Shown here: positions 62-9,331 of the stretch, piece by piece | Position numbering within the stretch: the first letter of the stretch is position 1 | How the letters are laid out: the number at the start of each line of letters is the position of its first letter | DNA from: Candidatus Eiseniibacteriota bacterium | GTDB taxonomy: Bacteria; Arandabacterota; Arandabacteria; JAGLYR01 | Direction: 5' to 3' | DNA: 9,534 nucleotides | Assembly: GCA_023132135.1 (NCBI GenBank) | Contig: JAGLYR010000159.1 | Location: 1-9,534 of the forward strand | Position numbers and translations under genes: made by a program | The notes under the pieces: generated by a model | Told to the model about the DNA's origin: nothing | Database searches by the model: none | What the model saw: the letters and a program-made list of their open reading frames with translations, nothing else

Positions 62-89
62 ATACTATCCCCACGCACGTGGGGAACAG
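62..89 (-). repeat. Degenerate terminal CRISPR repeat
   Basis: Compared with the other five repeats, this copy differs at 62, 63, 65 and 66; the hairpin core and the AACAG end are unchanged. In the transcribed (minus) direction the changes fall in the 3' handle segment, which reads ATAGTAT instead of ATGATCC. New repeats are copied at the leader, so the oldest, leader-distal repeat is free to drift. This is the main evidence for placing the leader at the other end. The hairpin is intact, so Cas6e could still cut here. Confidence 0.9.
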
Positions 90-394
90 GGGATAGCCGT
101 AATCGTCCCAGAGCAAGCCGACGGATCATCCCCACGCACGTGGGGAACAGCCTCCGGTCCTCATCCCACGCGCTCCGGACGTAGGATCATCCCCACGCAC
201 GTGGGGAACAGTTGCCTGTCTCGTAGTCCGTGCGACCTGTCCTCGGATCATCCCCACGCACGTGGGGAACAGACAATGCCGAACTCCGCCAGACCCTCTT
301 CCAGCGGATCATCCCCACGCACGTGGGGAACAGCGGAATCTCGACAGGTTTCTTCGCTCTCCCTACGGATCATCCCCACGCACGTGGGGAACAG
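62..394 (-). CRISPR. Type I-E CRISPR array, 6 repeats and 5 spacers
   Basis: Six 28-bp repeats start at 62, 123, 184, 245, 306 and 367. The period is exactly 61 bp, leaving five 33-bp spacers (90-122, 151-183, 212-244, 273-305, 334-366), all different. On the + strand the repeat begins GGATCATCCCC and ends GTGGGGAACAG. The five repeats from 123 to 394 are identical; the one at 62-89 differs at four bases of its left end. On the minus strand the repeat forms a 7-bp stem, TCCCCAC / GTGGGGA, around a GTGC loop. Cas6e cutting at the 3' base of the stem, as in E. coli, would leave the 5' handle ATGATCC plus one more base, which is G before four of the five spacers. Degeneracy at the left end, the E. 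coli-like handle and the cas gene direction all favour minus-strand transcription with the leader at 395-476. The 28/33 (or 29/32) geometry is typical of type I-E. Confidence 0.98.
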
Positions 395-476
395 AGCGAC
401 ATCATGCGTCTCGGCTTCTGTGTATCACTACATGTGGTATGCTTCAGTGGTCGAAGAACTGCTTCCTAGTCGGGAT
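395..476 (-). promoter_or_regulatory. Putative CRISPR leader
   Basis: These 82 bases lie between the exonuclease stop codon and the leader-proximal, perfect repeat. Counting gives 41 G+C of 82 (50%). In I-E systems the leader carries the array promoter and the site where Cas1-Cas2 inserts new spacers. I see no strong -35/-10 pair and no clear match to the IHF consensus that E. coli I-E adaptation needs. There is a 12-bp imperfect palindrome centred on ACATGT at 427-438, 32 bases from the first repeat. No terminator separates the exonuclease gene from the array, so cas-operon transcripts could run into it. The leader role is inferred from position and orientation. Confidence 0.6.
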
Positions 477-1295
477 TCACGTCCTTGGTGTATTGCGAGC
501 AATCGCGCGTCTAACAAGGCTTTCCCCCATGGGGTACGCGACCATGCTCTGCTCGATAAGGTACAATACCAGGGATTTCAAAACCCTCGCGTCTTCCTCA
601 TTGTAAGCTACGAGCCGCCTTAAGGCTTGTCCGTCGCCCGCAAGATACTGATACCAGAGTTTAATCGCCTCCATCCCATTTTGAACCGCGCTTGTGCGCT
701 TTGCCATGCCTAGCCGGCGTTCGATTTTCTTCAGACCACCGCTCATTCCTCGAGCACGAAATTCGTGCCACAAATCCAGATGCAGGTCCCCGCCTTTCCA
801 GCCCAAGCGGTGGCGCAGAAAACGCAAGTCGAATGCCTTGCCGTTGAACGTGACGAGGAGCGTCTTCTGATCCAACAACACCGGAGTTTCCTCAATATCT
901 CGGCCGTGGACCAAAACCCGGCAACGCGCCCCGTCGTACAAGGCGACAGTCGTAATCTCGCTCTTGAAGGGGCTCAAACCCGTGGTCTCGATATCAAGGA
1001 ACCACGTCTCGCCTGCCAAACACGGGTAGAGCCGCGAGCGCTCACCGGCCGGCAACCGAACTGCGAACCAGCGCCAGTCCTCGCTGGCTAGCGCCGTTTC
1101 CGCTTCGTCAAGATCCGCCAAGACGTTTGCATGGCGCCTCCGGCTAAGTAAGGTAGCTCCCCGGAGCCGGTAATCTTGCCAGGTCAAGACCCCCCGCGAC
1201 CAGAGCATCTGTTCCGCCGAAAGCCCAAGTTTACCCAACATGCAGAAGCTGGCGCGCAGAATCGCCGCACCGGGATTGTCCGAGCCGGAGGTCAC
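477..1295 (-). CDS. DEDDy 3'-5' exonuclease (YprB/RNase_H_2-like), cas2-linked
   Basis: A 272-residue protein of the RNase H-like exonuclease fold. Exo I is DIETTG at residues 101-106 (D101, E103). Exo II is FNGKAFD at 150-156 (D156). A segment with D174 (HLDLWHEFR) is followed by GLKKIERRLG (187-196), typical of YprB-like proteins. Exo III is Y231-x3-D235 (YNEED), making this the Tyr (DEDDy) subclass rather than DnaQ-type DEDDh. The N-terminal 45 residues (FCMLGKLGLSAEQMLW, then GVLTWQDY) resemble the short helical region that precedes the nuclease in family relatives; there is no signal peptide. The GTG start at 1293-1295 overlaps the cas2 TGA as GTGA, behind a purine-rich stretch (GGAAGGGGGTGAGGA), so it is translationally coupled to cas2. 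It is the last gene before the leader. By analogy with DnaQ-like domains fused to Cas2 in some I-E systems, which trim prespacers, I infer a role in prespacer end processing. Activity and strand or substrate choice are unproven. Confidence 0.88.
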   Translation of the reverse strand: MTSGSDNPGAAILRASFCMLGKLGLSAEQMLWSRGVLTWQDYRLRGATLLSRRRHANVLADLDEAETALASEDWRWFAVRLPAGERSRLYPCLAGETWFLDIETTGLSPFKSEITTVALYDGARCRVLVHGRDIEETPVLLDQKTLLVTFNGKAFDLRFLRHRLGWKGGDLHLDLWHEFRARGMSGGLKKIERRLGMAKRTSAVQNGMEAIKLWYQYLAGDGQALRRLVAYNEEDARVLKSLVLYLIEQSMVAYPMGESLVRRAIARNTPRT

Positions 1296-1591
1296 TCCTC
1301 ACCCCCTTCCTGCTCTCGCCAAGCCTCGGCCACAAGATGCAGACCGCACTCGCGCACGGGCTTGCGGTTTGTGTCACCGAAGGACTGGATTTCAAAACCC
1401 TGGCTGCCGCCATGGGATACGATCACAAGAAGTCCAAGCTTCGGCGCGTTGCGCAGCACGTACTGCAGTACGTTCTCGCGGGTGCGCCTGTTGACCGTGC
1501 CAACGAATACGTTCGGCCGCGGCTCGATAAACCAGCGCTTTAGCAAACCCCGGATAGCCGGGGGAGTATCGTTGGCGACGATCACGGTCAT
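1292..1591 (-). CDS. cas2: Cas2 (type I-E, Cas2e)
   Basis: A 99-residue protein matching the E. coli-type Cas2: MTVIVANDTPPAIRG at the start, NVFVGTVNRRTREN at 27-40 and GFEIQSFGDTNRKPV at 65-79. A Cas2 dimer bridges two Cas1 dimers to form the integrase that inserts 33-bp prespacers at the leader-repeat junction; in I-E it acts mainly as a scaffold. The ATG at 1589-1591 overlaps the cas1 TGA as ATGA, with AAGGAG about 8 bases upstream. The same reading frame is open well upstream inside cas1, but homology begins exactly at this ATG. There is no fused nuclease domain; a short acidic tail (REQEGGEE) ends the protein and the separate exonuclease gene follows with a 4-base overlap. Confidence 0.97.
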   Translation of the reverse strand: MTVIVANDTPPAIRGLLKRWFIEPRPNVFVGTVNRRTRENVLQYVLRNAPKLGLLVIVSHGGSQGFEIQSFGDTNRKPVRECGLHLVAEAWREQEGGEE

Positions 1592-2421
1592 GACAGAAGC
1601 TCCTTGATGTCCGCAGGCAGGCGCCGCAGGATATGTTTCTCCTCGATCTTGGCCTTGAGAAGCGTCAAAGCGTCCTTCTCCGTGGCCTCGGGATTGACAC
1701 TGATGGCGTGGAATGCCGCCTCCAGTGTCGTCTCCGGCTTGTAGATGTCCGCCATGTCGAAGACAAACGGCAGGGTGCCCGCCGAGTGGATGAACCCCAG
1801 TGTCGGCAAATATCCCATCGAACAAACCACAGCCGTGGTGAGCGCGTACAGCGCTGCGTTCGTAGCCGAGACAGCGCGGTTGATGTTGTCCGCGAGATCC
1901 CACCTGTCCGGGTTGTAGTTGCGGCCCTTCCAAGTAACGCCATAGCGCGCTCCCATCTCCTGATACAGCGCCTTGACGCGCCTTCCCTCCATACCTCGCA
2001 GTTCGTCGATCTTCTTCTCCGCCACAACCGACTCGGGGAATCGCTTCGCGAACATCCGGCGGGCAATCTGCATGCGCTTCGTACGGTTGGCATGAAGCTC
2101 GGCGTGTCTGCGGGCGTTGGAGTTGTCATGCGTGGCCGACACGCCGCAGGCATAGAATCGCATGCCTTCCTCACCGATCCAGCAGATCGGAGTATTGCAC
2201 TCAGCACATGTCTTGATCGCCGCATGCGTGACGGTCGTGCCCGGCCCGAGCATCAGCACGCTCACTGTGGCCACGGGGATGCGCAGGACCGTCCGATCCG
2301 CGCCGATCCACTTGACCGACGCGTCGTCCACTTCCAGCCGACCGTGCTCCAGGTACAGGGGTGTCCAGCGCTCGCGAGCCAGAGTTAGCGTTTCCAATGG
2401 TGGCTTTTCAAAGATCGGCAC
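1588..2421 (-). CDS. cas1: Cas1 integrase (type I-E)
   Basis: A 277-residue Cas1 (E. coli Cas1 is 305), the metal-dependent integrase of spacer acquisition, working with Cas2. The N-terminal beta domain starts PIFEKPPLETLTLARERW, and the helical catalytic domain carries the expected metal ligands: E145 (RGMEGRR), H212 (GFIHSAG) and D225, with D222 (FVFDMADIYKP). I chose the GTG at 2419-2421 because GGAGG (2428-2432) lies six bases upstream and the family-like sequence begins there. In-frame ATGs at 2443-2448 would add residues that do not look like Cas1 and that overlap cas5e more deeply. With the GTG start it overlaps the end of cas5e by 14 bases, and its TGA overlaps the cas2 ATG. All catalytic residues are present, so it is predicted to be active. 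Confidence 0.97.
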   Translation of the reverse strand: MPIFEKPPLETLTLARERWTPLYLEHGRLEVDDASVKWIGADRTVLRIPVATVSVLMLGPGTTVTHAAIKTCAECNTPICWIGEEGMRFYACGVSATHDNSNARRHAELHANRTKRMQIARRMFAKRFPESVVAEKKIDELRGMEGRRVKALYQEMGARYGVTWKGRNYNPDRWDLADNINRAVSATNAALYALTTAVVCSMGYLPTLGFIHSAGTLPFVFDMADIYKPETTLEAAFHAISVNPEATEKDALTLLKAKIEEKHILRRLPADIKELLS

Positions 2422-3094
2422 TTTCGGCCTCCGCGAAGGGCACATCATCGACGCGCCGCACCGTGAATTCCCGTTTGGCGAAGTCGAGTGGCACATCCAT
2501 GAGCGTGTCTGACCCCGCAGCGAAGTCACTCACTTCGACTACCCTCCTTCGCACGCTGCCGCGGCCGGTGCGAGCAAAGAGGTGTCGGATGGCATCTGCT
2601 TCGCACGGAAACATGCCTTGGTTGACAGGCTGCGCTGGAATGCAACATTTCCGGCCGAGCCAAATGCCCCATTTCGGATTGCGCAAGGCTTCGTCGCAGC
2701 GCTTCAGGAGCGCAGCGCTACCTGTGAGCAACGTGCCGAACTTGGCGTCGGACAAATACTCCCGGTCCGTTAACACTGTGTGGCGGGCAGCACCAGACGC
2801 CTTGCGCGGAATGCTCCATCGCTCGGCCCTGGCATCGTATCCGCCACCTACGGTGTGGTAGTCCATCCAGCATCCGCACTCTCCAAGGCCAAGAACCGTG
2901 ACACCGAGATACGAAGGCGCCAGTTCAGCCAAGCGTGACCGATCTCCTCGGGGGATGCCCATGGCGGCGGCAAGTATCCCAACGATTCCACTTCGTGTCG
3001 GATAGAACAGCGTTGTTCGTCGGTTGAACCGACTCTGGTGGCCCCAAGATTGCATAGGGCCATCCAGCAGCAAAGCCAGGACTGGTTCAGGCAT
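2408..3094 (-). CDS. cas5e: Cas5e, Cascade subunit (CasD)
   Basis: A 228-residue RAMP protein that caps the 5' handle end of the crRNA in Cascade and contacts Cas8e. Family features are LLLDGPMQSWG at 8-18, the TLFYPTRSGIVGILAAAMG block at 28-46, DYHTVGGG at 78-85, EYLSDAKFG at 112-120 and WLGRKCCIPAQP at 145-156. The length is close to E. coli CasD (224). The ATG at 3092-3094 overlaps the cas7e stop by 8 bases (ATGCCTGA), with a GAGGGGG purine run 9 bases upstream. The frame stays open upstream to 3166, but that part lies inside cas7e and has no Cas5 character. The 3' end overlaps cas1. Confidence 0.96.
   Translation of the reverse strand: MPEPVLALLLDGPMQSWGHQSRFNRRTTLFYPTRSGIVGILAAAMGIPRGDRSRLAELAPSYLGVTVLGLGECGCWMDYHTVGGGYDARAERWSIPRKASGAARHTVLTDREYLSDAKFGTLLTGSAALLKRCDEALRNPKWGIWLGRKCCIPAQPVNQGMFPCEADAIRHLFARTGRGSVRRRVVEVSDFAAGSDTLMDVPLDFAKREFTVRRVDDVPFAEAESADL
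2428..2432 (-). promoter_or_regulatory. Shine-Dalgarno deciding the cas1 GTG start
   Basis: GGAGG on the minus strand, six bases before the GTG at 2419-2421. No comparable site precedes the in-frame ATGs at 2443-2448, so this motif supports the shorter 277-residue Cas1. Confidence 0.75.
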
Positions 3095-4139
3095 GGCCGA
3101 GCACCCCCTCGATGAGATCGTCCAGCGAGTTATCCGGAATCCTGAATGCCGTGGCCTGGATACCATAGGTCTTGCTCAACGCGGTGAAGTGATCCTCCAT
3201 TTGTTTGTTCGATTCCTCCACATAGCCGTTGCGGGAACGAACAGGTTTCTCGAAGGCGTTGGCGAGTGATAAGGGTTGCCCGCTGCGGGCAAGCGCGAGG
3301 ACGTTCGCTGGTGGGTTGTGGCCGAGCATGGAGTTGTGGCGCGCGGTCGGGACCGCCAGGATGCAGGCCCGGAGGAAGGCCTCGGCTACTTTCTTGCGTT
3401 CGTCTTCAGAGAAATGGCCGAGATGATCCGGATCGCACAAGAGATCCCAGTTGAGCCCGATGTATCGGTAGTAGCAGGCGGAATTGAACTCAAGCGTTCC
3501 GATGTGCCCCGCGCCCTCCGACTCCTCCGGCTTCAACTCATCCACCGCGGAAAAGAAGTCGATTTCGTTGCTGACCCCGTGCGTGGAGAGCGCGTGGCTG
3601 AACATGCCGGCGCCTTCAAGCATGAGCGTGTGGTCGTCGGCGACCATGCGGCCGAAGATGGCGATGTCCGCATGATCACGAGGTGGAGCTGCCTCAATGG
3701 CTTTCTTGATCGCGCCCTTCTTGACGTCCGCCTTGCCGCCCGTCCGGACCTCGTCGGCAATGGCCTTGGCTATGGCCCGTAACTCTAAAGGCGACAGATA
3801 CAAGGCCACCGAGGTCTTGTGCTCAGCCTTGTGCTTCTTGTCCTGCTTTCCCAAGAACGTCGCCACGGCCTCGGCGCTCTCCCTGGCTTTGTCCACGGGT
3901 ACCCCTTCGGCAACCAGCTTCTCCTGGAGCGGTTCCGCCACGTAGTGACCGCGCTTGCCAGCGAAGAGGGACGGCTGCAATTCGGTCGCCAGTTCCCGGA
4001 TTGCTCTCTTCCAGCACTGGCTGGACACGCGCGCCCGGGGAACACCCCCGAACAACGCCGATTTGGGCGCGCCCACATCATCTCGGTTGAGACATGTCAC
4101 GGGGAAGGAGTGCAGGATGTGAAGTTCGATCAGTTTCAT
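3087..4139 (-). CDS. cas7e: Cas7e, Cascade backbone subunit (Cse4/CasC)
   Basis: A 350-residue protein (E. coli CasC is 363) that assembles in six copies along the crRNA and kinks it every sixth base. The signature LNRDDVGAPKSALFGG at 17-32 runs into RARVSSQCWKRAIR at 35-48. Further family blocks are IAIFGRM at 159-165, GHIGTLEFNSACYYRYI at 211-227 and VPTARHNSMLGHNPPA at 263-278. A lysine-rich stretch at 98-108 (KQDKKHKAEHK) probably lies in an RNA-facing or inserted loop; this is inference. It starts at ATG 4137-4139. The ribosome site is weak (GAAAGGGCGAGACC before ATG). This is the only gene in the operon that does not overlap its upstream neighbour: 28 bases separate it from the cas6e stop. 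Confidence 0.97.
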   Translation of the reverse strand: MKLIELHILHSFPVTCLNRDDVGAPKSALFGGVPRARVSSQCWKRAIRELATELQPSLFAGKRGHYVAEPLQEKLVAEGVPVDKARESAEAVATFLGKQDKKHKAEHKTSVALYLSPLELRAIAKAIADEVRTGGKADVKKGAIKKAIEAAPPRDHADIAIFGRMVADDHTLMLEGAGMFSHALSTHGVSNEIDFFSAVDELKPEESEGAGHIGTLEFNSACYYRYIGLNWDLLCDPDHLGHFSEDERKKVAEAFLRACILAVPTARHNSMLGHNPPANVLALARSGQPLSLANAFEKPVRSRNGYVEESNKQMEDHFTALSKTYGIQATAFRIPDNSLDDLIEGVLGHA

Positions 4140-4167
4140 GGTCTCGCCCTTTCTCGAGTGGATTCAG

Positions 4168-4785
4168 TCACGCATCGTCGCGGACCGGCATGAGCATCAG
4201 CATCCCAAAGCCAAATGCCTTAGCCGAACCGATTCCTTTCGCGAAAGATTCCCGAAATGCCTGCCGGTCCGTCACCCGCAGAACGCCCTCAAAGTCCACG
4301 GCAGCGTGGGTTCCTCGCTGGCCCTTCTTGCGAAAACTCTGCCTGACGGGTGGCGTGAAGGAGACATCTTCCACGGCAAACCCACCTTGCTCGGCTTTGC
4401 GCCTCAGCCATTCGCGCAAAGCCCCCTCGTTATAGATCGCGACCCGCCGGCTGTTCTTCTTGATCTCGCCTTTCTCGTCCAGTGCCGTTCGCTTTACCGT
4501 GGGATTGGCGCGCAGCGAGAAGCGATAGCGGTCGTGAGCTAGAAAGGAATCTGCAATCTCCTTTGTCTCCCATGTGCCCCACGCCGGAGGAGTGGGCTTG
4601 TCTTCAGAGACGATGAACGCCTCAAATCCATCTCGCTTGCGGCCGAACCGCATCAGAAAATCCCGGGTCTGTCCGTCCCTTGTGGGAAAGCTTTCCCACA
4701 AGGCCTGGTGCCAGGCATACGAATCGCAGAGTCGTCTGACAGCGGCTTCCCGCAGTGGGAGCCGCACGCGCGTAAGCCAAGTCAT
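4168..4785 (-). CDS. cas6e: Cas6e crRNA endoribonuclease (Cse3/CasE)
   Basis: A 205-residue endoribonuclease (E. coli CasE is 199) that cuts the repeat hairpin of the array transcript and stays bound to the 3' stem-loop as part of Cascade. Y23 and H26 (DSYAWHQALW, 21-30) sit where the catalytic Tyr23 and His26 of the Thermus enzyme are. LRANPTVKR at 91-99 and the C-terminal glycine-rich loop GIGSAKAFGFG at 184-194 are classic family features. The ATG at 4783-4785 overlaps the cse2 TGA as ATGA; AAGGAGG and a GGGGGTGG run lie upstream. It stands between cse2 and cas7e rather than after cas5e as in E. coli and Thermus. Its expected substrate is the 7-bp stem of the array at 62-394. Confidence 0.97.
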   Translation of the reverse strand: MTWLTRVRLPLREAAVRRLCDSYAWHQALWESFPTRDGQTRDFLMRFGRKRDGFEAFIVSEDKPTPPAWGTWETKEIADSFLAHDRYRFSLRANPTVKRTALDEKGEIKKNSRRVAIYNEGALREWLRRKAEQGGFAVEDVSFTPPVRQSFRKKGQRGTHAAVDFEGVLRVTDRQAFRESFAKGIGSAKAFGFGMLMLMPVRDDA

Positions 4786-5300
4786 GAGCCACCCCCGTCC
4801 TCCTTTGGCGCACCCCAGAACTGCGCGGCCCAAGCGATTTTGGGCCTACCGCCATTCCACCACCAGAAATCCTGGAACAACTGCGTGTAGTTAACCGGAA
4901 CCCCTTTCTGCTTCGCTGCGCGCATTACCTCGCCCACCCGCGAGCAGACTTCCTCGGTGGTCTGGCAAGCGAGCAGGCGGCGAAAACGACTCTCGAAGGA
5001 CGCCAACCCATCCTCAGTCTTACCGCCACCCATAGCAATCCTACGCAGGGTGGCTCCAAGGTTCCCTTCTGCGGCAGCGTCCGGCTGTGTGGCGTAGGCC
5101 GCTGCGACCGTGGTGTAGATGGTGCGAATCCAATCCTTCTCTAGGTCGCACCATCGAGCAATCCATGGCCAAGCCCGGTCCTCAGTTGCCTGGTTCAGAC
5201 CGCGGCGCAGGTTGGCCATGGCCCCTCGGTCGTCCTTCAGCTTTTCCAGTTCAACCAGCAGTTCCTCCGCCCGTCTCCTAACCTCCTCACTCTTGCTCAT
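4782..5300 (-). CDS. cse2: Cse2 (CasB/Cas11e), Cascade small subunit
   Basis: A 172-residue, mostly helical protein (E. coli CasB is about 160). Two copies line the belly of Cascade and stabilise the displaced DNA strand of the R-loop. Family features are RGAMANLRRG at 25-34, FESRFRRLLAC at 102-112 and VNYTQLFQDFWWWN at 136-149. The first 25 residues are highly charged, rich in Glu, Arg and Lys. The ATG at 5298-5300 has the strongest ribosome site in the window (full AAGGAGGTGA, 5304-5313), suggesting high output, as expected for a subunit present in more than one copy. The gene overlaps the cas8e 3' end by 14 bases, and its TGA overlaps the cas6e ATG. Confidence 0.95.
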   Translation of the reverse strand: MSKSEEVRRRAEELLVELEKLKDDRGAMANLRRGLNQATEDRAWPWIARWCDLEKDWIRTIYTTVAAAYATQPDAAAEGNLGATLRRIAMGGGKTEDGLASFESRFRRLLACQTTEEVCSRVGEVMRAAKQKGVPVNYTQLFQDFWWWNGGRPKIAWAAQFWGAPKEDGGGS

Positions 5301-6765
5301 TCGTCACCTCCTTCCGTCGGCCACGCTTCGCTCTCTTGGGTTCTGTCTCTTCCGCCTTCCTTCTGATCCGCAAGCGTTGCTGCCCGGCGGCATATGCTTG
5401 AATCTGCCGAGGCGTTTCGTGAGGGCAAGCAAACGCATATGCGTCCTGCATGCTGCGCCAGACTTGCTGCTGCCACGGCCCTAGGTCTGCACCTTCATTG
5501 ACCAGGTTGAGTAACATCCCTCGATGCGCGTCAAGCGTAGACCAGTAGTGCGTGGCGGCAGAACGCAAATCTCCGGAATAGTCCGCATTGAGGGCATGAC
5601 GATAGGTCTTGACCGCTTCCCTGATCGCCGCCTCGCCCCTGTCCGCGTATGCAATTTCGTTGCCGTAGGCCAGCAGGGCCGGAGCGCCAATGATGCCTGC
5701 AGGTACGTGGAAATTCCATTCCGCCGCATCCACAGCTCTCCCGCTCTTCCCGGCAACGACGCCACCGACCCAGATATCCACCGGCGCATCGCATCCAGAG
5801 ACAAGATGGCCGAGGGCGTACGCGCCTCCTTGTGTGCCAGCTTGCCCAAACCTGAGTATGCCGCTCAGTTCCCGCCAAGGGTGCTTGTTCAGATTGATTC
5901 CGAGGTAGCGTTGCTCTCCGTCTCCACGTTTGATGATGCAAGCCATCGTGTCCCTTGCCTGGGGGTACTTCGGAAAGGCAACTCCATTAGCCAGTGTCAG
6001 AGAACGCTTGCCAGCCTCAAGAAGTACCGCCCTGGAAACAGGCACCAACCGTCCTAGAACAGTGGATGCCATCTGTCGCTCCACTTCGCTGACCCCGCTT
6101 GATGTGTCCAGATCCCACACTGGTGTTCCCCACTGACTCCCCCCGGTCAGTCGTCTGGTGACTAGATTCTTCCACACAGTCTCCAGGAGACTGTCGCCTC
6201 GGATGATAGTGAGTAGGGCTGAGGATTCGAGGCAAGGCGCGTGCTCACTGTTGCGCCCCGTCTTTTGGCCGGCCCATACTGTCTCGCCAATGGTTCCCCC
6301 TGGAGAGAAGCACTGAAAAGTCAAGAGATGCAGAGCGATCCAGGCAGAATCGTGATCGCGTCCCGCGGGACAAGCGTCCTGGTCAAACAGCGTGGAGTTG
6401 TTGCCCGCCGCCAGCCCCAAATCCAGCTTGTCCAAAGTAGCGTTGTGCGTCGGAGTCAGACTCGGCACCTGCAGGAACGGCGTCGGGCCGAACAGATCGA
6501 ACTTCTGCGTGCGCTCACCGAGATAACGCAAACTATCGGGCGGGATCCGCACCTTACATTCGCGCCAGTCATCCTCATCTGCAGGCCCATCCAGTGCCGC
6601 GTGGGTGATGCAGAGCAAGAGCCGCATGAGGGCCACGCGCTGAGGAGGTGTGACCACGAGATCGCAGACCTCATCCCCTTGCTCGAAGGCCTCCTGAAGG
6701 CTCACAAGCCGATGCTGGCCGTCTCTGAAAATTACGGGAATCCAAGGATCACCAATCAGATTCAT
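5287..6765 (-). CDS. cas8e: Cas8e (Cse1/CasA), Cascade large subunit
   Basis: A 492-residue protein (E. coli CasA is 502) that recognises the PAM, opens target DNA and recruits Cas3. The N-terminus MNLIGDPWIPVIFRDG and the block KFDLFGPTPFLQV at 88-100 are family hallmarks. They are followed by GNNSTLFDQD at 121-130, near the L1 loop that contacts crRNA and PAM, and LLTFQCFSPGGTIG at 147-160. The C-terminal part (about 360-460) should form the four-helix bundle that binds the non-target strand and Cse2. The last 30 residues are strongly basic (RIRRK..., PKRAKRGRRKE), which could be a DNA-contacting tail. The ATG at 6763-6765 has GAGGAGG six bases upstream and gives the conserved N-terminus; the upstream in-frame start at 6780 would add only MRRRD. 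It overlaps the cas3 stop by 17 bases. Confidence 0.96.
   Translation of the reverse strand: MNLIGDPWIPVIFRDGQHRLVSLQEAFEQGDEVCDLVVTPPQRVALMRLLLCITHAALDGPADEDDWRECKVRIPPDSLRYLGERTQKFDLFGPTPFLQVPSLTPTHNATLDKLDLGLAAGNNSTLFDQDACPAGRDHDSAWIALHLLTFQCFSPGGTIGETVWAGQKTGRNSEHAPCLESSALLTIIRGDSLLETVWKNLVTRRLTGGSQWGTPVWDLDTSSGVSEVERQMASTVLGRLVPVSRAVLLEAGKRSLTLANGVAFPKYPQARDTMACIIKRGDGEQRYLGINLNKHPWRELSGILRFGQAGTQGGAYALGHLVSGCDAPVDIWVGGVVAGKSGRAVDAAEWNFHVPAGIIGAPALLAYGNEIAYADRGEAAIREAVKTYRHALNADYSGDLRSAATHYWSTLDAHRGMLLNLVNEGADLGPWQQQVWRSMQDAYAFACPHETPRQIQAYAAGQQRLRIRRKAEETEPKRAKRGRRKEVTNEQE
5304..5313 (-). promoter_or_regulatory. Very strong Shine-Dalgarno for cse2
   Basis: On the minus strand this reads AAGGAGGTGA, a ten-base complement to the usual 3' end of 16S rRNA, ending three bases before the cse2 ATG. 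It lies inside the last codons of cas8e. Independent strong initiation here would let the multi-copy Cascade subunits be made in excess of Cas8e and Cas3; that consequence is inference. Confidence 0.85.
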
Positions 6766-9331
6766 GTCTCGCCTCCTCAACAGCGTCTTCGTGTTCCCGT
6801 ACGAATACTCCGAGTTCGTCGGTGTAGGCCAGCGACGTTTGGCCGCCTGACGGTGTTCGAAGCCCGCCGTCTTCCCCGACTACAAGGATGCCTGCAGCAT
6901 GCTTCCCGGTACCGCGCACGAATTGCCTCAACCATTTCGGTGGGTCGAACTCCGGAGTGTGCCTGTTCTTCCGAAGATGAACGAGGTTCAGGTGCAAGGC
7001 CTTTGCAACGCGGAAGTTCTTCTCGAACTCGCTGAACTCCAGCTGCTCGCCACTGAGGAGCAGAAGGCGCACAGCGTTGCCGTTCTGCTGGTGTGCCCGG
7101 ACGAGCACAAACGGTATGCTCACGCCTAGTCCGTAGCGAGTGGCCGTTGTCTCATCATCGTCCATCGTGAGCATGTGATCGCCACCCATGGCTATGGCCA
7201 TGTTCCGCAACTTGACGCACTGTCGGGTGTGCTTTTCCCACAATTCCTTCTTGGCCCATTCCGGGTCGTCTGGCCGGGGTTCGATGTAGGTCGCTTCCAG
7301 CACTGTTCGAATCCCCGAGGGAATCAACAAATCCTCCAATCCGCGCCACACACGATATGTGCGCCACAGCACATAGGGCGAGTACACGTAGAAGGAACCA
7401 CCGAGCATCTCTCGGAACTCGGCCACGTCCGTGGCGCTTCCGAGATCCGGTGTGGTAATCCATGTCTCCGGCTGCCCCACCCTACGGTCGGCCCGTTCGT
7501 GCCGCCACACCCGGCCCATGCGCTGGAGCATCATGTCTGTAGGCGCAAGGTCCGTGACCAATAGGTCAGCATCTACGTCAACACTCTGCTCCATGACCTG
7601 CGTAGCAACGAGGACACAACCTTTGTTCCGAGCCGCGCTTTTCCCGAGACGCGTAATCCACTCCGTCTCCAGCGCCTCACGCCGGAAAGCAGGGAACCGC
7701 GAATGCAGGAGGCCCACGTCCGCGCCATCTTGTCGCACGGCCGCCTTCGCCATCTTGTAGCAGGTCTGTGCGCGGTCCACAGTATTGGCGATCCAAAGCA
7801 CTGCCACGCCAGCGTCGGCCCTCTCGCCCAGACGATTGGCCAGTAGTGTCGGATCCTGCTCTGCCCGCCGGAGCAGGAAGCGGCGATCAGGAGGAGCATC
7901 CGCCGGGACGGAGCACACCCTGCCACTCGCGCTTGAAGTGCTGATTAGAGGATACCCCTCCCTACTTGCCGCCTGCTGGATGAACTGAGATCGGCGCGCT
8001 TGAGTCAACGTAGCCGACAAGATGAACACCGAACAACCGAGCCCGAGCAAAGCTTCAACGAGCCTGTCGATCAGAGTGCCCGTAAACATATCATAGGAGT
8101 GCACTTCGTCGAGAATCACGACCTTGCCAGCCAACCCAAAGAGCCGCAGGAAGTTGTGCCTGACCTTGAGCACGCCGAGAAGTGCCTGATCAACCGTACC
8201 TACGCCGAAGGGCAGCAAGAGACCCCGCTTCGCAGGACTGAACCATGCGCCTCCCGGTCTGAATTCTTTGCCCCCATGTTCCGTAGCCTTCACCCAAGCA
8301 GAGCCATGGAGAAGACGGGCAGCCGCGTCGGCGCCAAAAGCAACCTTGAGGAAACAGTTCACCCGCTCGTGGATGCGATTGCTCGTGAGCTGGGTTGGAA
8401 GACCGAAGTAGATGCCATGGTTGTGTCCAGCCACGATCAGGCGATACGCCGCCCACAGCGCAGCTTCCGTCTTGCCCATTCCCATGGGCGCTTCGACGAT
8501 GTAGAGGCCCGGCGTCTGGGCGGTGTCGAAAACCGTGCGCTGCATCGCGTTGGGCGACATCTGCGGAAACAATTCCTCGAATCCGAGCATTGGGCGGACT
8601 TCCGGCCATATCCACCCCGCATCATCGAGAACTGATTCGATGTGGCATTCCAAGTCTAAATCCGAGGGGATCCCCTGCCAGTCAAACCACTCTTCGTCTG
8701 AAGCAATCCAGTCCGCTACGCAAGTCAAACCGGTTGCCAACCACAGATCCCTGGTCGCAGGCGGCTGGCCGGGTAAGCCCCCAAAAGCTCGTGCGAGGTG
8801 ATCGATCAGGGATTCTCGCTCAGCGAGCCAGGACTTGCCGCCATACACTTCCTGCCCTGCCGCTTCAGGGACTGGCTCACCCTGCCTGCGTCGGCCCCCG
8901 TGGTGCGCCCCTGCCACCAGCGCCCACTCCCGCAACTGTTTGCCATTAGGACGCGAGCTAAACCAGTGCGCGACCGTGTCCTCGCTGACCTGGGCGTGAG
9001 GATTAGCTTGATTTCGGTAGTGTGTCGCAGGATATGCTGTGAGTTCGGCCGGAACCCCGCCCGCTGACTCGGCATAAATGTGCCGGAGAAAACACGGGTT
9101 AATCTTCCCCACGTCATGCAGGGCAACAAGAGCGGCGGCTCCCTGCGGAATCAACTGCCTGAGGGCTTCGGGCATTCGCGCAATGATAGCCCGCGCGATT
9201 GTCCCCGCTATTCGGCAGTGTTCTTCCACAGAAAGGCCGGGCTGGTTTTCTGAAGTGAGTTTTGCCAAGTACTTGACATTGGGCAAAGAGTTGTTGTTCC
9301 TGTGCGCGCAGAATCTCACCATGATCGTCAT
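6749..9331 (-). CDS. cas3: Cas3 HD nuclease-helicase
   Basis: An 860-residue protein with an N-terminal HD nuclease and a C-terminal SF2 helicase, recruited by target-bound Cascade to nick, unwind and degrade DNA. HD residues, numbered from this start, are H38 (EEHC), H72-D73 with K76 (ALHDVGK), H143-H144 (GAHHG) and D207 (CVADW). Helicase motifs are Walker A APMGMGKT (281-288), DEVH (408-411), SAT (439-441), QSVDVDADLLVTD (582-594) and QRMGRVWRH (603-611). The region after about 650 is the linker and C-terminal domain; it is full length, with no truncation or frameshift. I chose the ATG at 9329-9331 because GGGAAG lies seven bases upstream. An ATG three codons later (9322) and a TTG at 9358 are alternatives, and an in-frame stop lies just above the TTG. 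It is the first gene of the operon and overlaps cas8e by 17 bases. Confidence 0.97.
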   Translation of the reverse strand: MTIMVRFCAHRNNNSLPNVKYLAKLTSENQPGLSVEEHCRIAGTIARAIIARMPEALRQLIPQGAAALVALHDVGKINPCFLRHIYAESAGGVPAELTAYPATHYRNQANPHAQVSEDTVAHWFSSRPNGKQLREWALVAGAHHGGRRRQGEPVPEAAGQEVYGGKSWLAERESLIDHLARAFGGLPGQPPATRDLWLATGLTCVADWIASDEEWFDWQGIPSDLDLECHIESVLDDAGWIWPEVRPMLGFEELFPQMSPNAMQRTVFDTAQTPGLYIVEAPMGMGKTEAALWAAYRLIVAGHNHGIYFGLPTQLTSNRIHERVNCFLKVAFGADAAARLLHGSAWVKATEHGGKEFRPGGAWFSPAKRGLLLPFGVGTVDQALLGVLKVRHNFLRLFGLAGKVVILDEVHSYDMFTGTLIDRLVEALLGLGCSVFILSATLTQARRSQFIQQAASREGYPLISTSSASGRVCSVPADAPPDRRFLLRRAEQDPTLLANRLGERADAGVAVLWIANTVDRAQTCYKMAKAAVRQDGADVGLLHSRFPAFRREALETEWITRLGKSAARNKGCVLVATQVMEQSVDVDADLLVTDLAPTDMMLQRMGRVWRHERADRRVGQPETWITTPDLGSATDVAEFREMLGGSFYVYSPYVLWRTYRVWRGLEDLLIPSGIRTVLEATYIEPRPDDPEWAKKELWEKHTRQCVKLRNMAIAMGGDHMLTMDDDETTATRYGLGVSIPFVLVRAHQQNGNAVRLLLLSGEQLEFSEFEKNFRVAKALHLNLVHLRKNRHTPEFDPPKWLRQFVRGTGKHAAGILVVGEDGGLRTPSGGQTSLAYTDELGVFVREHEDAVEEARHESDW

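What the first reader, a model, noticed from the sequence alone, without database searches (positions are those of the whole stretch)
477..1295. Free-standing DEDDy exonuclease built into the I-E adaptation module
The sequence shows an intact DEDD+Tyr exonuclease (D101, E103, D156, Y231, D235) whose GTG start overlaps the cas2 stop, placing it as the last gene before the leader. Some I-E systems carry a DnaQ-like (DEDDh) domain fused to Cas2, and host DnaQ-family nucleases can trim prespacers. Here the nuclease is a separate polypeptide from the YprB/RNase_H_2 branch with Tyr in motif III. I infer a dedicated prespacer-trimming factor acquired independently of the DnaQ fusions. Its N-terminal helical region could be a Cas1-Cas2 docking or DNA-binding part.
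Basis: partly seen in the sequence, partly recalled or inferred. Interest (0 to 1): 0.72.

Follow-up and report, generated by a model that had tools for sequence, protein, structure and literature searches.

The report
DEDDy exonuclease in CRISPR adaptation operon
Next to the genes that write new CRISPR memories, this bacterium and 13 relatives from other groups carry a dedicated DNA-trimming enzyme that was apparently recruited once from a housekeeping family and has travelled with the memory-writing machinery since; it probably trims captured DNA to size, a step whose enzymes are still undetermined in the textbook system.

Summary
Window 477-1295 (minus strand) encodes a 272-aa PF13482 (RNase_H_2) exonuclease with intact D101/E103/D156/Y231/D235. 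Its GTG start overlaps the cas2 stop as GTGA, and it is the last gene of a complete type I-E operon before an 82-bp leader and array. It is the only PF13482 match in this genome. The linkage is not a one-off: 13 other I-E loci, in Lentisphaerota, Kiritimatiellota and related bacteria, carry an orthologue directly after cas2. All 14 form one clade (bootstrap 100, SH-aLRT 97). Every unlinked family member tested, including second copies in the same genomes, lies outside it. The exonuclease co-diverges with Cas1 and Cas2 (Mantel r 0.79 and 0.82). In sister I-E loci of the same phylum the slot holds a different free-standing DEDDh exonuclease, or Cas2 is fused to DEDDh, or nothing is there; no locus has two. 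A dedicated 3'-5' prespacer trimmer, recruited separately from the DnaQ-like ones, is the best reading, but activity is untested. The N-terminal 'docking' idea is not supported: that region is a family-wide domain. New variant of a known kind.

The parts
477..1295 (-). Free-standing DEDDy exonuclease (PF13482), 272 aa, last gene of the I-E operon
   Evidence: ORF; Pfam E 3.2e-29; AlphaFold2 mean pLDDT 92.4; only PF13482 match in the genome
978..995 (-). Motif I, D101-I-E103-T-T-G106
   Evidence: D101, E103 and G106 invariant in the 14 cas2-linked copies
828..830 (-). Motif II Asp156 (FNGKAFD)
   Evidence: invariant in A1, A3 and A4
591..605 (-). Motif III Y231-N-E-E-D235 (DEDDy type)
   Evidence: Tyr and Asp invariant in A1, A3 and A4
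1008..1274 (-). N-terminal all-helical domain (residues 8-96), shared by the whole family, weakly helix-hairpin-helix-like
   Evidence: alignments; helices in model; sub-threshold HHH_5 hits in relatives only
1292..1295 (-). 4-nt overlap of cas2 stop and exonuclease start (GTGA)
   Evidence: sequence; similar overlap in most linked loci
1292..1591 (-). cas2 (Cas2e, 99 aa, no fused domain)
   Evidence: PF09707 and TIGR01873; length
1588..2421 (-). cas1 (Cas1e); the ORF is open to 2529 but the likely start is GTG at 2421
   Evidence: TIGR03638, match from residue 48 of the long ORF; start position inferred from the sequence
2408..3166 (-). cas5e
   Evidence: TIGR01868
3087..4139 (-). cas7e (cse4)
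   Evidence: TIGR01869
4168..4833 (-). cas6e (cse3)
   Evidence: TIGR01907
4782..5300 (-). cse2
   Evidence: TIGR02548
5287..6780 (-). cse1
   Evidence: TIGR02547
6749..9358 (-). cas3
   Evidence: Cas3 HD and helicase domains
395..476 (-). leader between the exonuclease stop and the first repeat
62..394 (-). CRISPR array, six 28-nt repeats with 33-nt spacers; the leader-distal repeat (62-89) is degenerate

Best explanation
The gene encodes a dedicated adaptation nuclease. A DEDDy 3'-5' DNA exonuclease of the PF13482 family was recruited once between cas2 and the leader of an I-E system and has been inherited with cas1-cas2 since. It most likely trims the 3' single-stranded overhangs of prespacers held by Cas1-Cas2 down to integration length, and possibly removes the PAM-side end, in the way the DEDDh domain does in Cas2/DEDDh trimmer-integrases, but as a separate polypeptide co-translated with Cas2. 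Shown here: the gene, the intact active site, the fold class, the single clade, the linkage, co-divergence with Cas1/Cas2, and replacement by DEDDh enzymes at the same place. Inferred: DNA rather than RNA as substrate, 3'-5' polarity, action on Cas1-Cas2-bound prespacers.
For: Intact DEDDy residues in all 14 linked copies. The model matches DEDDy proofreading domains of family B DNA polymerases (Z up to 15.9) and NrnC. By sequence profile the closest solved protein is MrfB, a 3'-5' DNA exonuclease (PMC11194089). Recurrent placement directly after cas2 in 14 loci, with the start overlapping or within about 10 nt of the cas2 stop in most. One clade, 100/97; same-genome paralogues and unlinked relatives lie outside. 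Co-divergence with Cas1 and Cas2, Mantel p 1e-4. In sister loci the same slot holds a free-standing DEDDh (L177, L180) or Cas2 carries a fused DEDDh (L138-L141), and no locus has two. A Cas2/DEDDh fusion is a proven prespacer trimmer (PMC10284694).
Against: No biochemical or genetic data. Many close I-E relatives have no nuclease in this slot, so it is dispensable or replaceable by host enzymes. Spacer length is 33 nt with or without it, so the array shows no clear trimming signature. Co-divergence and linkage would also arise for any stable operon member. DEDD exonucleases can act on RNA.
Confidence: 0.72

Rival explanations
1. The nuclease belongs to the CRISPR operon but acts elsewhere: degrading Cas3-generated DNA (feeding fragments to adaptation or finishing interference) rather than setting prespacer ends.
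For: A 3'-5' ssDNA exonuclease could process Cas3 products, and the operon is co-oriented with cas3.
Against: The gene sits with cas1-cas2, not cas3, in all 14 loci; the alternative occupants of the slot are the known trimmer type, in one case fused to Cas2 itself.
Confidence: 0.13
2. It processes RNA, for example maturing or turning over pre-crRNA.
For: DEDD folds include RNases, and NrnC is among the structural matches.
Against: I-E crRNAs are matured by Cas6e, which is present, and classically keep their 3' hairpin (established knowledge); the closest sequence relative with a solved structure is a DNA exonuclease.
Confidence: 0.06
3. A general repair exonuclease that happens to be trapped in the operon, without a role in adaptation.
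For: The family is widespread and mostly unlinked to CRISPR; haloarchaeal copies sit beside unrelated genes.
Against: 14 linked copies form one exclusive clade across several classes, co-diverge with Cas1/Cas2 and mostly keep the start-stop overlap; several genomes hold a separate unlinked paralogue as well.
Confidence: 0.06
4. Regulatory or structural: a Cas1-Cas2 partner in which catalysis is incidental.
For: Clade-specific residues exist outside the active site, for example A27 and E178.
Against: The catalytic residues are invariant although mean identity is only 42%.
Confidence: 0.03

Closest known systems
Cas1-Cas2/DEDDh trimmer-integrase (Megasphaera type I-E; PMC10284694)
   Same: Type I-E without Cas4 in the operon; DEDD-superfamily exonuclease tied to Cas2; proposed task (3' overhang trimming, PAM removal)
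   Different: There the nuclease is a DnaQ-like DEDDh domain fused to Cas2; here it is a separate DEDDy protein of PF13482 with an extra N-terminal helical domain
Free-standing CRISPR-associated DEDDh (PADLOC PDLC01247), present in L177 and L180
   Same: Separate exonuclease gene between cas2 and the array
   Different: Different family (PF00929; His in motif III); the window protein matches this model only over 23 residues around motif I
MrfB/YprB of Bacillus subtilis (PDB 8un9; PMC11194089)
   Same: Closest solved protein by sequence profile, aligned over the nuclease core; wedge leucine six residues after the first Asp also present (L107)
   Different: MrfB is DEDDh, has a C-terminal TPR domain and works with the helicase MrfA in DNA repair; no CRISPR link
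Unlinked 'ribonuclease H-like domain-containing protein' family of archaea and bacteria (for example Halorussus megaplasmids, Geotalea)
   Same: Same full-length architecture: N-terminal helical domain plus PF13482, about 30-40% identity
   Different: Not beside cas genes; outside the CRISPR clade
Host exonucleases DnaQ/ExoT in E. coli I-E adaptation (PMC9699676)
   Same: Can trim prespacer 3' ends in vitro
   Different: Not part of the CRISPR operon and not essential in vivo in E. coli

Membership tests
PF13482 RNase_H_2 | Domain match above the Pfam gathering score | tested here: met
   102.4 bits against a cut-off of 22
DEDDy 3'-5' exonucleases | D, E, D, D plus Tyr four residues before the last Asp | tested here: met
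   D101, E103, D156, D235, Y231; invariant in A1, A3, A4
DEDDy 3'-5' exonucleases | DnaQ/PolB proofreading fold | tested here: met
   AF2 pLDDT 92.4; family B polymerase exonuclease domains at Z 14-16
DEDDy 3'-5' exonucleases | Measured 3'-5' activity | not testable with these tools
   needs purified protein
MrfB/YprB | C-terminal TPR domain | tested here: not met
   only PF13482 found; model ends shortly after the nuclease core
MrfB/YprB | His as fifth catalytic residue (DEDDh) | tested here: not met
   Tyr231; MrfB has His258 (PMC11194089)
CRISPR-associated DEDDh (PDLC01247) | Full-length match to the DEDDh model and His in motif III | tested here: not met
   E 1.5e-4 over residues 99-121 only; L177 and L180 match at 4.6e-26 and 1.3e-17 over nearly the whole model
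Cas2/DEDDh fusion | Nuclease fused to Cas2 in one polypeptide | tested here: not met
   Cas2 is 99 aa with its own stop
Type I-E CRISPR-Cas | cas3, cse1, cse2, cas7, cas5, cas6e, cas1e, cas2e and array | tested here: met
Prespacer trimmers (functional class) | Acts on Cas1-Cas2-bound prespacer 3' ends | not testable with these tools
   inferred only

The most novel reading that the evidence does not exclude
The DEDDy protein is an obligate third subunit of a Cas1-Cas2-exonuclease integrase in these phyla. It was recruited independently of the DEDDh trimmers and handles the PAM-side end differently, so that the PAM-derived first nucleotide of the spacer is not always kept, unlike in exonuclease-less sisters.
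Probability: 0.18. Interest if true: 0.78.

Novelty: new variant of a known kind. Interest (0 to 1): 0.6.

Why it matters
Which enzymes make prespacer 3' ends in type I-E systems without Cas4 is an open question; in E. coli DnaQ and ExoT proved non-essential and the set of enzymes is 'yet to be determined' (PMC9699676). Here is a lineage that appears to have its own gene for the step, with an intact active site, next to cas2. Within one broad bacterial group the same slot is filled by a DEDDy enzyme, a free-standing DEDDh, a Cas2-fused DEDDh, or nothing. That is a natural comparative series for testing whether adaptation needs a dedicated trimmer, and it suggests that exonucleases were recruited to Cas1-Cas2 more than once. 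The literature searched here holds no description of this association, and PADLOC has no model for it.

Tried and rejected
N-terminal domain as a CRISPR-specific docking part: rejected as a special feature, because it is shared with unlinked relatives; co-option is not excluded. Pfam names no clear domain there: HHH_5 appears only below cut-off, in relatives and not in the window protein. Viral contigs: one weak relative. Plasmids: only haloarchaeal megaplasmid copies, none beside cas genes in the three inspected. Spacer-length signature: none, 33 nt with or without the gene. First spacer nucleotide looser in exonuclease-carrying arrays (G in 165 of 217 against 211 of 219), but not significant per array (p 0.12), and the arrays are related; kept only as an observation. 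First alignment for the genome scan was too divergent; a four-member one worked. Shmakov 2018 and Makarova 2020 are not held, so their gene lists could not be checked.

Full report
The gene and its place. The ORF at 477-1295, minus strand, GTG start, 272 aa matches PF13482 RNase_H_2 at E 3.2e-29 over residues 99-245. NCBIfam and PADLOC give no family-level hit; PADLOC's CRISPR-associated DEDDh model matches only 23 residues around motif I. All other genes of the window form a complete type I-E operon, cas3-cse1-cse2-cas6e-cas7-cas5-cas1-cas2. The GTG of the nuclease and the TGA of cas2 overlap as GTGA. Six 28-nt repeats at a 61-bp period lie at 62-394, so an 82-bp leader (395-476) separates the nuclease stop from the array. 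In the genome (345 contigs, 96% complete) this is the only PF13482 match and there is one Cas1. The genome's phylum holds only eight genomes in the collection.

Catalytic residues and fold. D101, E103, D156, Y231 and D235 are invariant in a diverse 16-member alignment of full-length relatives, in the 30-member alignment and in the 14 cas2-linked copies, although mean identity among the latter is only 42%. AlphaFold2 with the 30-sequence alignment gives pLDDT 92.4. The nuclease core (about residues 92-260) matches the DEDDy proofreading domains of family B DNA polymerases (Z up to 15.9) and NrnC. By sequence profile the closest solved chain is MrfB of B. subtilis, 8un9, E 1.2e-9, a 3'-5' DNA exonuclease (PMC11194089). 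MrfB is however DEDDh with a TPR domain, so the window protein is a relative of MrfB/YprB but not an orthologue by those features. The N-terminal helical domain, consensus TFxHIPGIGxxxERxLWxxGxLxWxDF, is present in the unlinked relatives too; some relatives give sub-threshold helix-hairpin-helix hits. It is a family trait, perhaps DNA-binding (inference).

Is the linkage conserved? A scan of 84,980 species genomes with a four-member family alignment returned the 80 best relatives, which it found through two short motifs. One, L043 (Lentisphaeria MAG SLSR01000249.1), has the same operon order with the nuclease after cas2 and its ATG overlapping the cas2 stop; that genome too has no other PF13482 match. 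Searches from the Cas1 side over sampled genomes of L043's phylum (387), L043's class (197), the class of G335 (345) and Planctomycetota (392) brought the total, with the window, to 14 loci with the nuclease directly after cas2. G335 carries a contig of exactly the length of L070's Kiritimatiellaeota MAG contig (174,637 bases), so its class is most likely Kiritimatiellae (inference). There 11 of 13 close Cas1 loci have the gene. In most loci the start overlaps the cas2 stop by 1-14 nt. In the loci whose contig reaches far enough, the array follows the nuclease.

One origin, separate from the housekeeping copies. A tree of 114 family members put all 14 linked copies in one clade (SH-aLRT 99). 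Adding PF13482 paralogues from genomes that carry a linked copy (G335, G435, G267, G738, G735, G604) or lack one kept that clade intact, 96/98, and adding 19 further unlinked copies from the class gave 100/97. With a model built from the linked copies, the 11 linked copies of that class score 327-372 bits and every unlinked copy 237 bits or less; this gap is partly by construction. None of the 19 fetched unlinked loci has cas1 or cas2 in its flanks of about 1.5 kb. Pairwise divergence of the nuclease tracks that of Cas1 (r 0.79) and Cas2 (r 0.82), p 1e-4 each, which is what co-inheritance predicts. The Cas1-Cas2 tree needs two changes of presence; the pair L162 (present) and L170 (absent) shows a recent gain or loss.

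What sits there in sister loci. L177 (G241) and L180 (G327) carry, between cas2 and the array, a separate DEDDh exonuclease (PF00929; PADLOC DEDDh 4.6e-26 and 1.3e-17), of a different family. In L138, L139 and L140, and in L141 as far as its contig goes, Cas2 is fused to a DEDDh domain. Others have nothing in the slot. No locus has two. G419 (L172) is undecided because the contig ends at cas2. Non-orthologous replacement of one exonuclease type by another at the same place, one of them of the kind proven to trim prespacers when fused to Cas2 (PMC10284694), is the strongest argument for function. The number of independent switches is small and was not corrected for phylogeny.

Mechanism proposed. 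Cas1-Cas2 holds a duplex with long 3' overhangs; the DEDDy enzyme, made from the same message as Cas2, shortens the 3' ends until the integrase shields them, as shown for Cas1-Cas2/DEDDh (PMC10284694). Shown: gene, residues, fold class, linkage, clade, co-divergence, replacement. Inferred: substrate, polarity, partner. Against a strong unique effect: spacers are 33 nt with or without the gene, and many relatives manage without it. The first spacer nucleotide, G in 211 of 219 repeats of arrays without the gene, is G in 165 of 217 in arrays with it, but per array the difference is not significant (p 0.12) and some arrays with the gene are strictly G.

Known or new. Free-standing DEDDh exonucleases are described as widespread ancillary components, and a Cas2/DEDDh fusion is characterised (PMC10284694). 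Searches of open-access full text for PF13482, RNase_H_2, YprB or DEDDy together with CRISPR found no paper describing this association. Two key neighbourhood surveys were not held, so prior listing in a supplementary table is not excluded. I file it as a new variant of a known kind: a dedicated adaptation exonuclease from a different nuclease branch.

Noticed in passing
L177 (oriented 9265-9834) and L180 (oriented 9618-10211): Free-standing DEDDh exonuclease between cas2 and the array in sister I-E loci, the slot that holds the DEDDy enzyme in the window.
   Followed up: yes
L138:2496-3359, L139, L140:2436-3302, L141: Cas2 fused to a DEDDh domain in I-E loci of the same phylum (L141 cut by the contig end).
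   Followed up: yes
L043:6051-7049; oriented L158 6143-7051, L162, L165 1061-2020, L174 4114-4989: About 300-aa HEAT/CxxC/PD-(D/E)XK gene (PADLOC HEAT_CxxC_PDDEXK, E 1.3e-114 for the L043 copy) inside the I-E operon, between cas6 and cas7 or between cse1 and cse2, in loci with and without the exonuclease; absent from the window.
   Followed up: partly
L161 (oriented 3772-5397) and L167 (oriented 4506-5531): A gene that looks RhuM-like sits between cse1 and cse2; in L161 it reads through in frame into cse2. Identification by eye only.
   Followed up: no
L173 (oriented 7635-8057): A small PIN-domain-like ORF (CFLDTNVLVYAF) between cas5 and cas1; identification by eye only.
   Followed up: no
arrays of L154, L158-L180: The position after the 28-nt repeat is nearly always G without the exonuclease but variable in several arrays with it; per-array test not significant (p 0.12).
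   Followed up: partly
L160 (G267) array: Unit length varies from 58 to 63 bp, unlike the near-constant 61 elsewhere; imprecise trimming or assembly error cannot be told apart.
   Followed up: no
window 1588-2529: The cas1 ORF is open about 36 codons upstream of the conserved start and overlaps cas5; the real start is probably GTG at 2421.
   Followed up: partly
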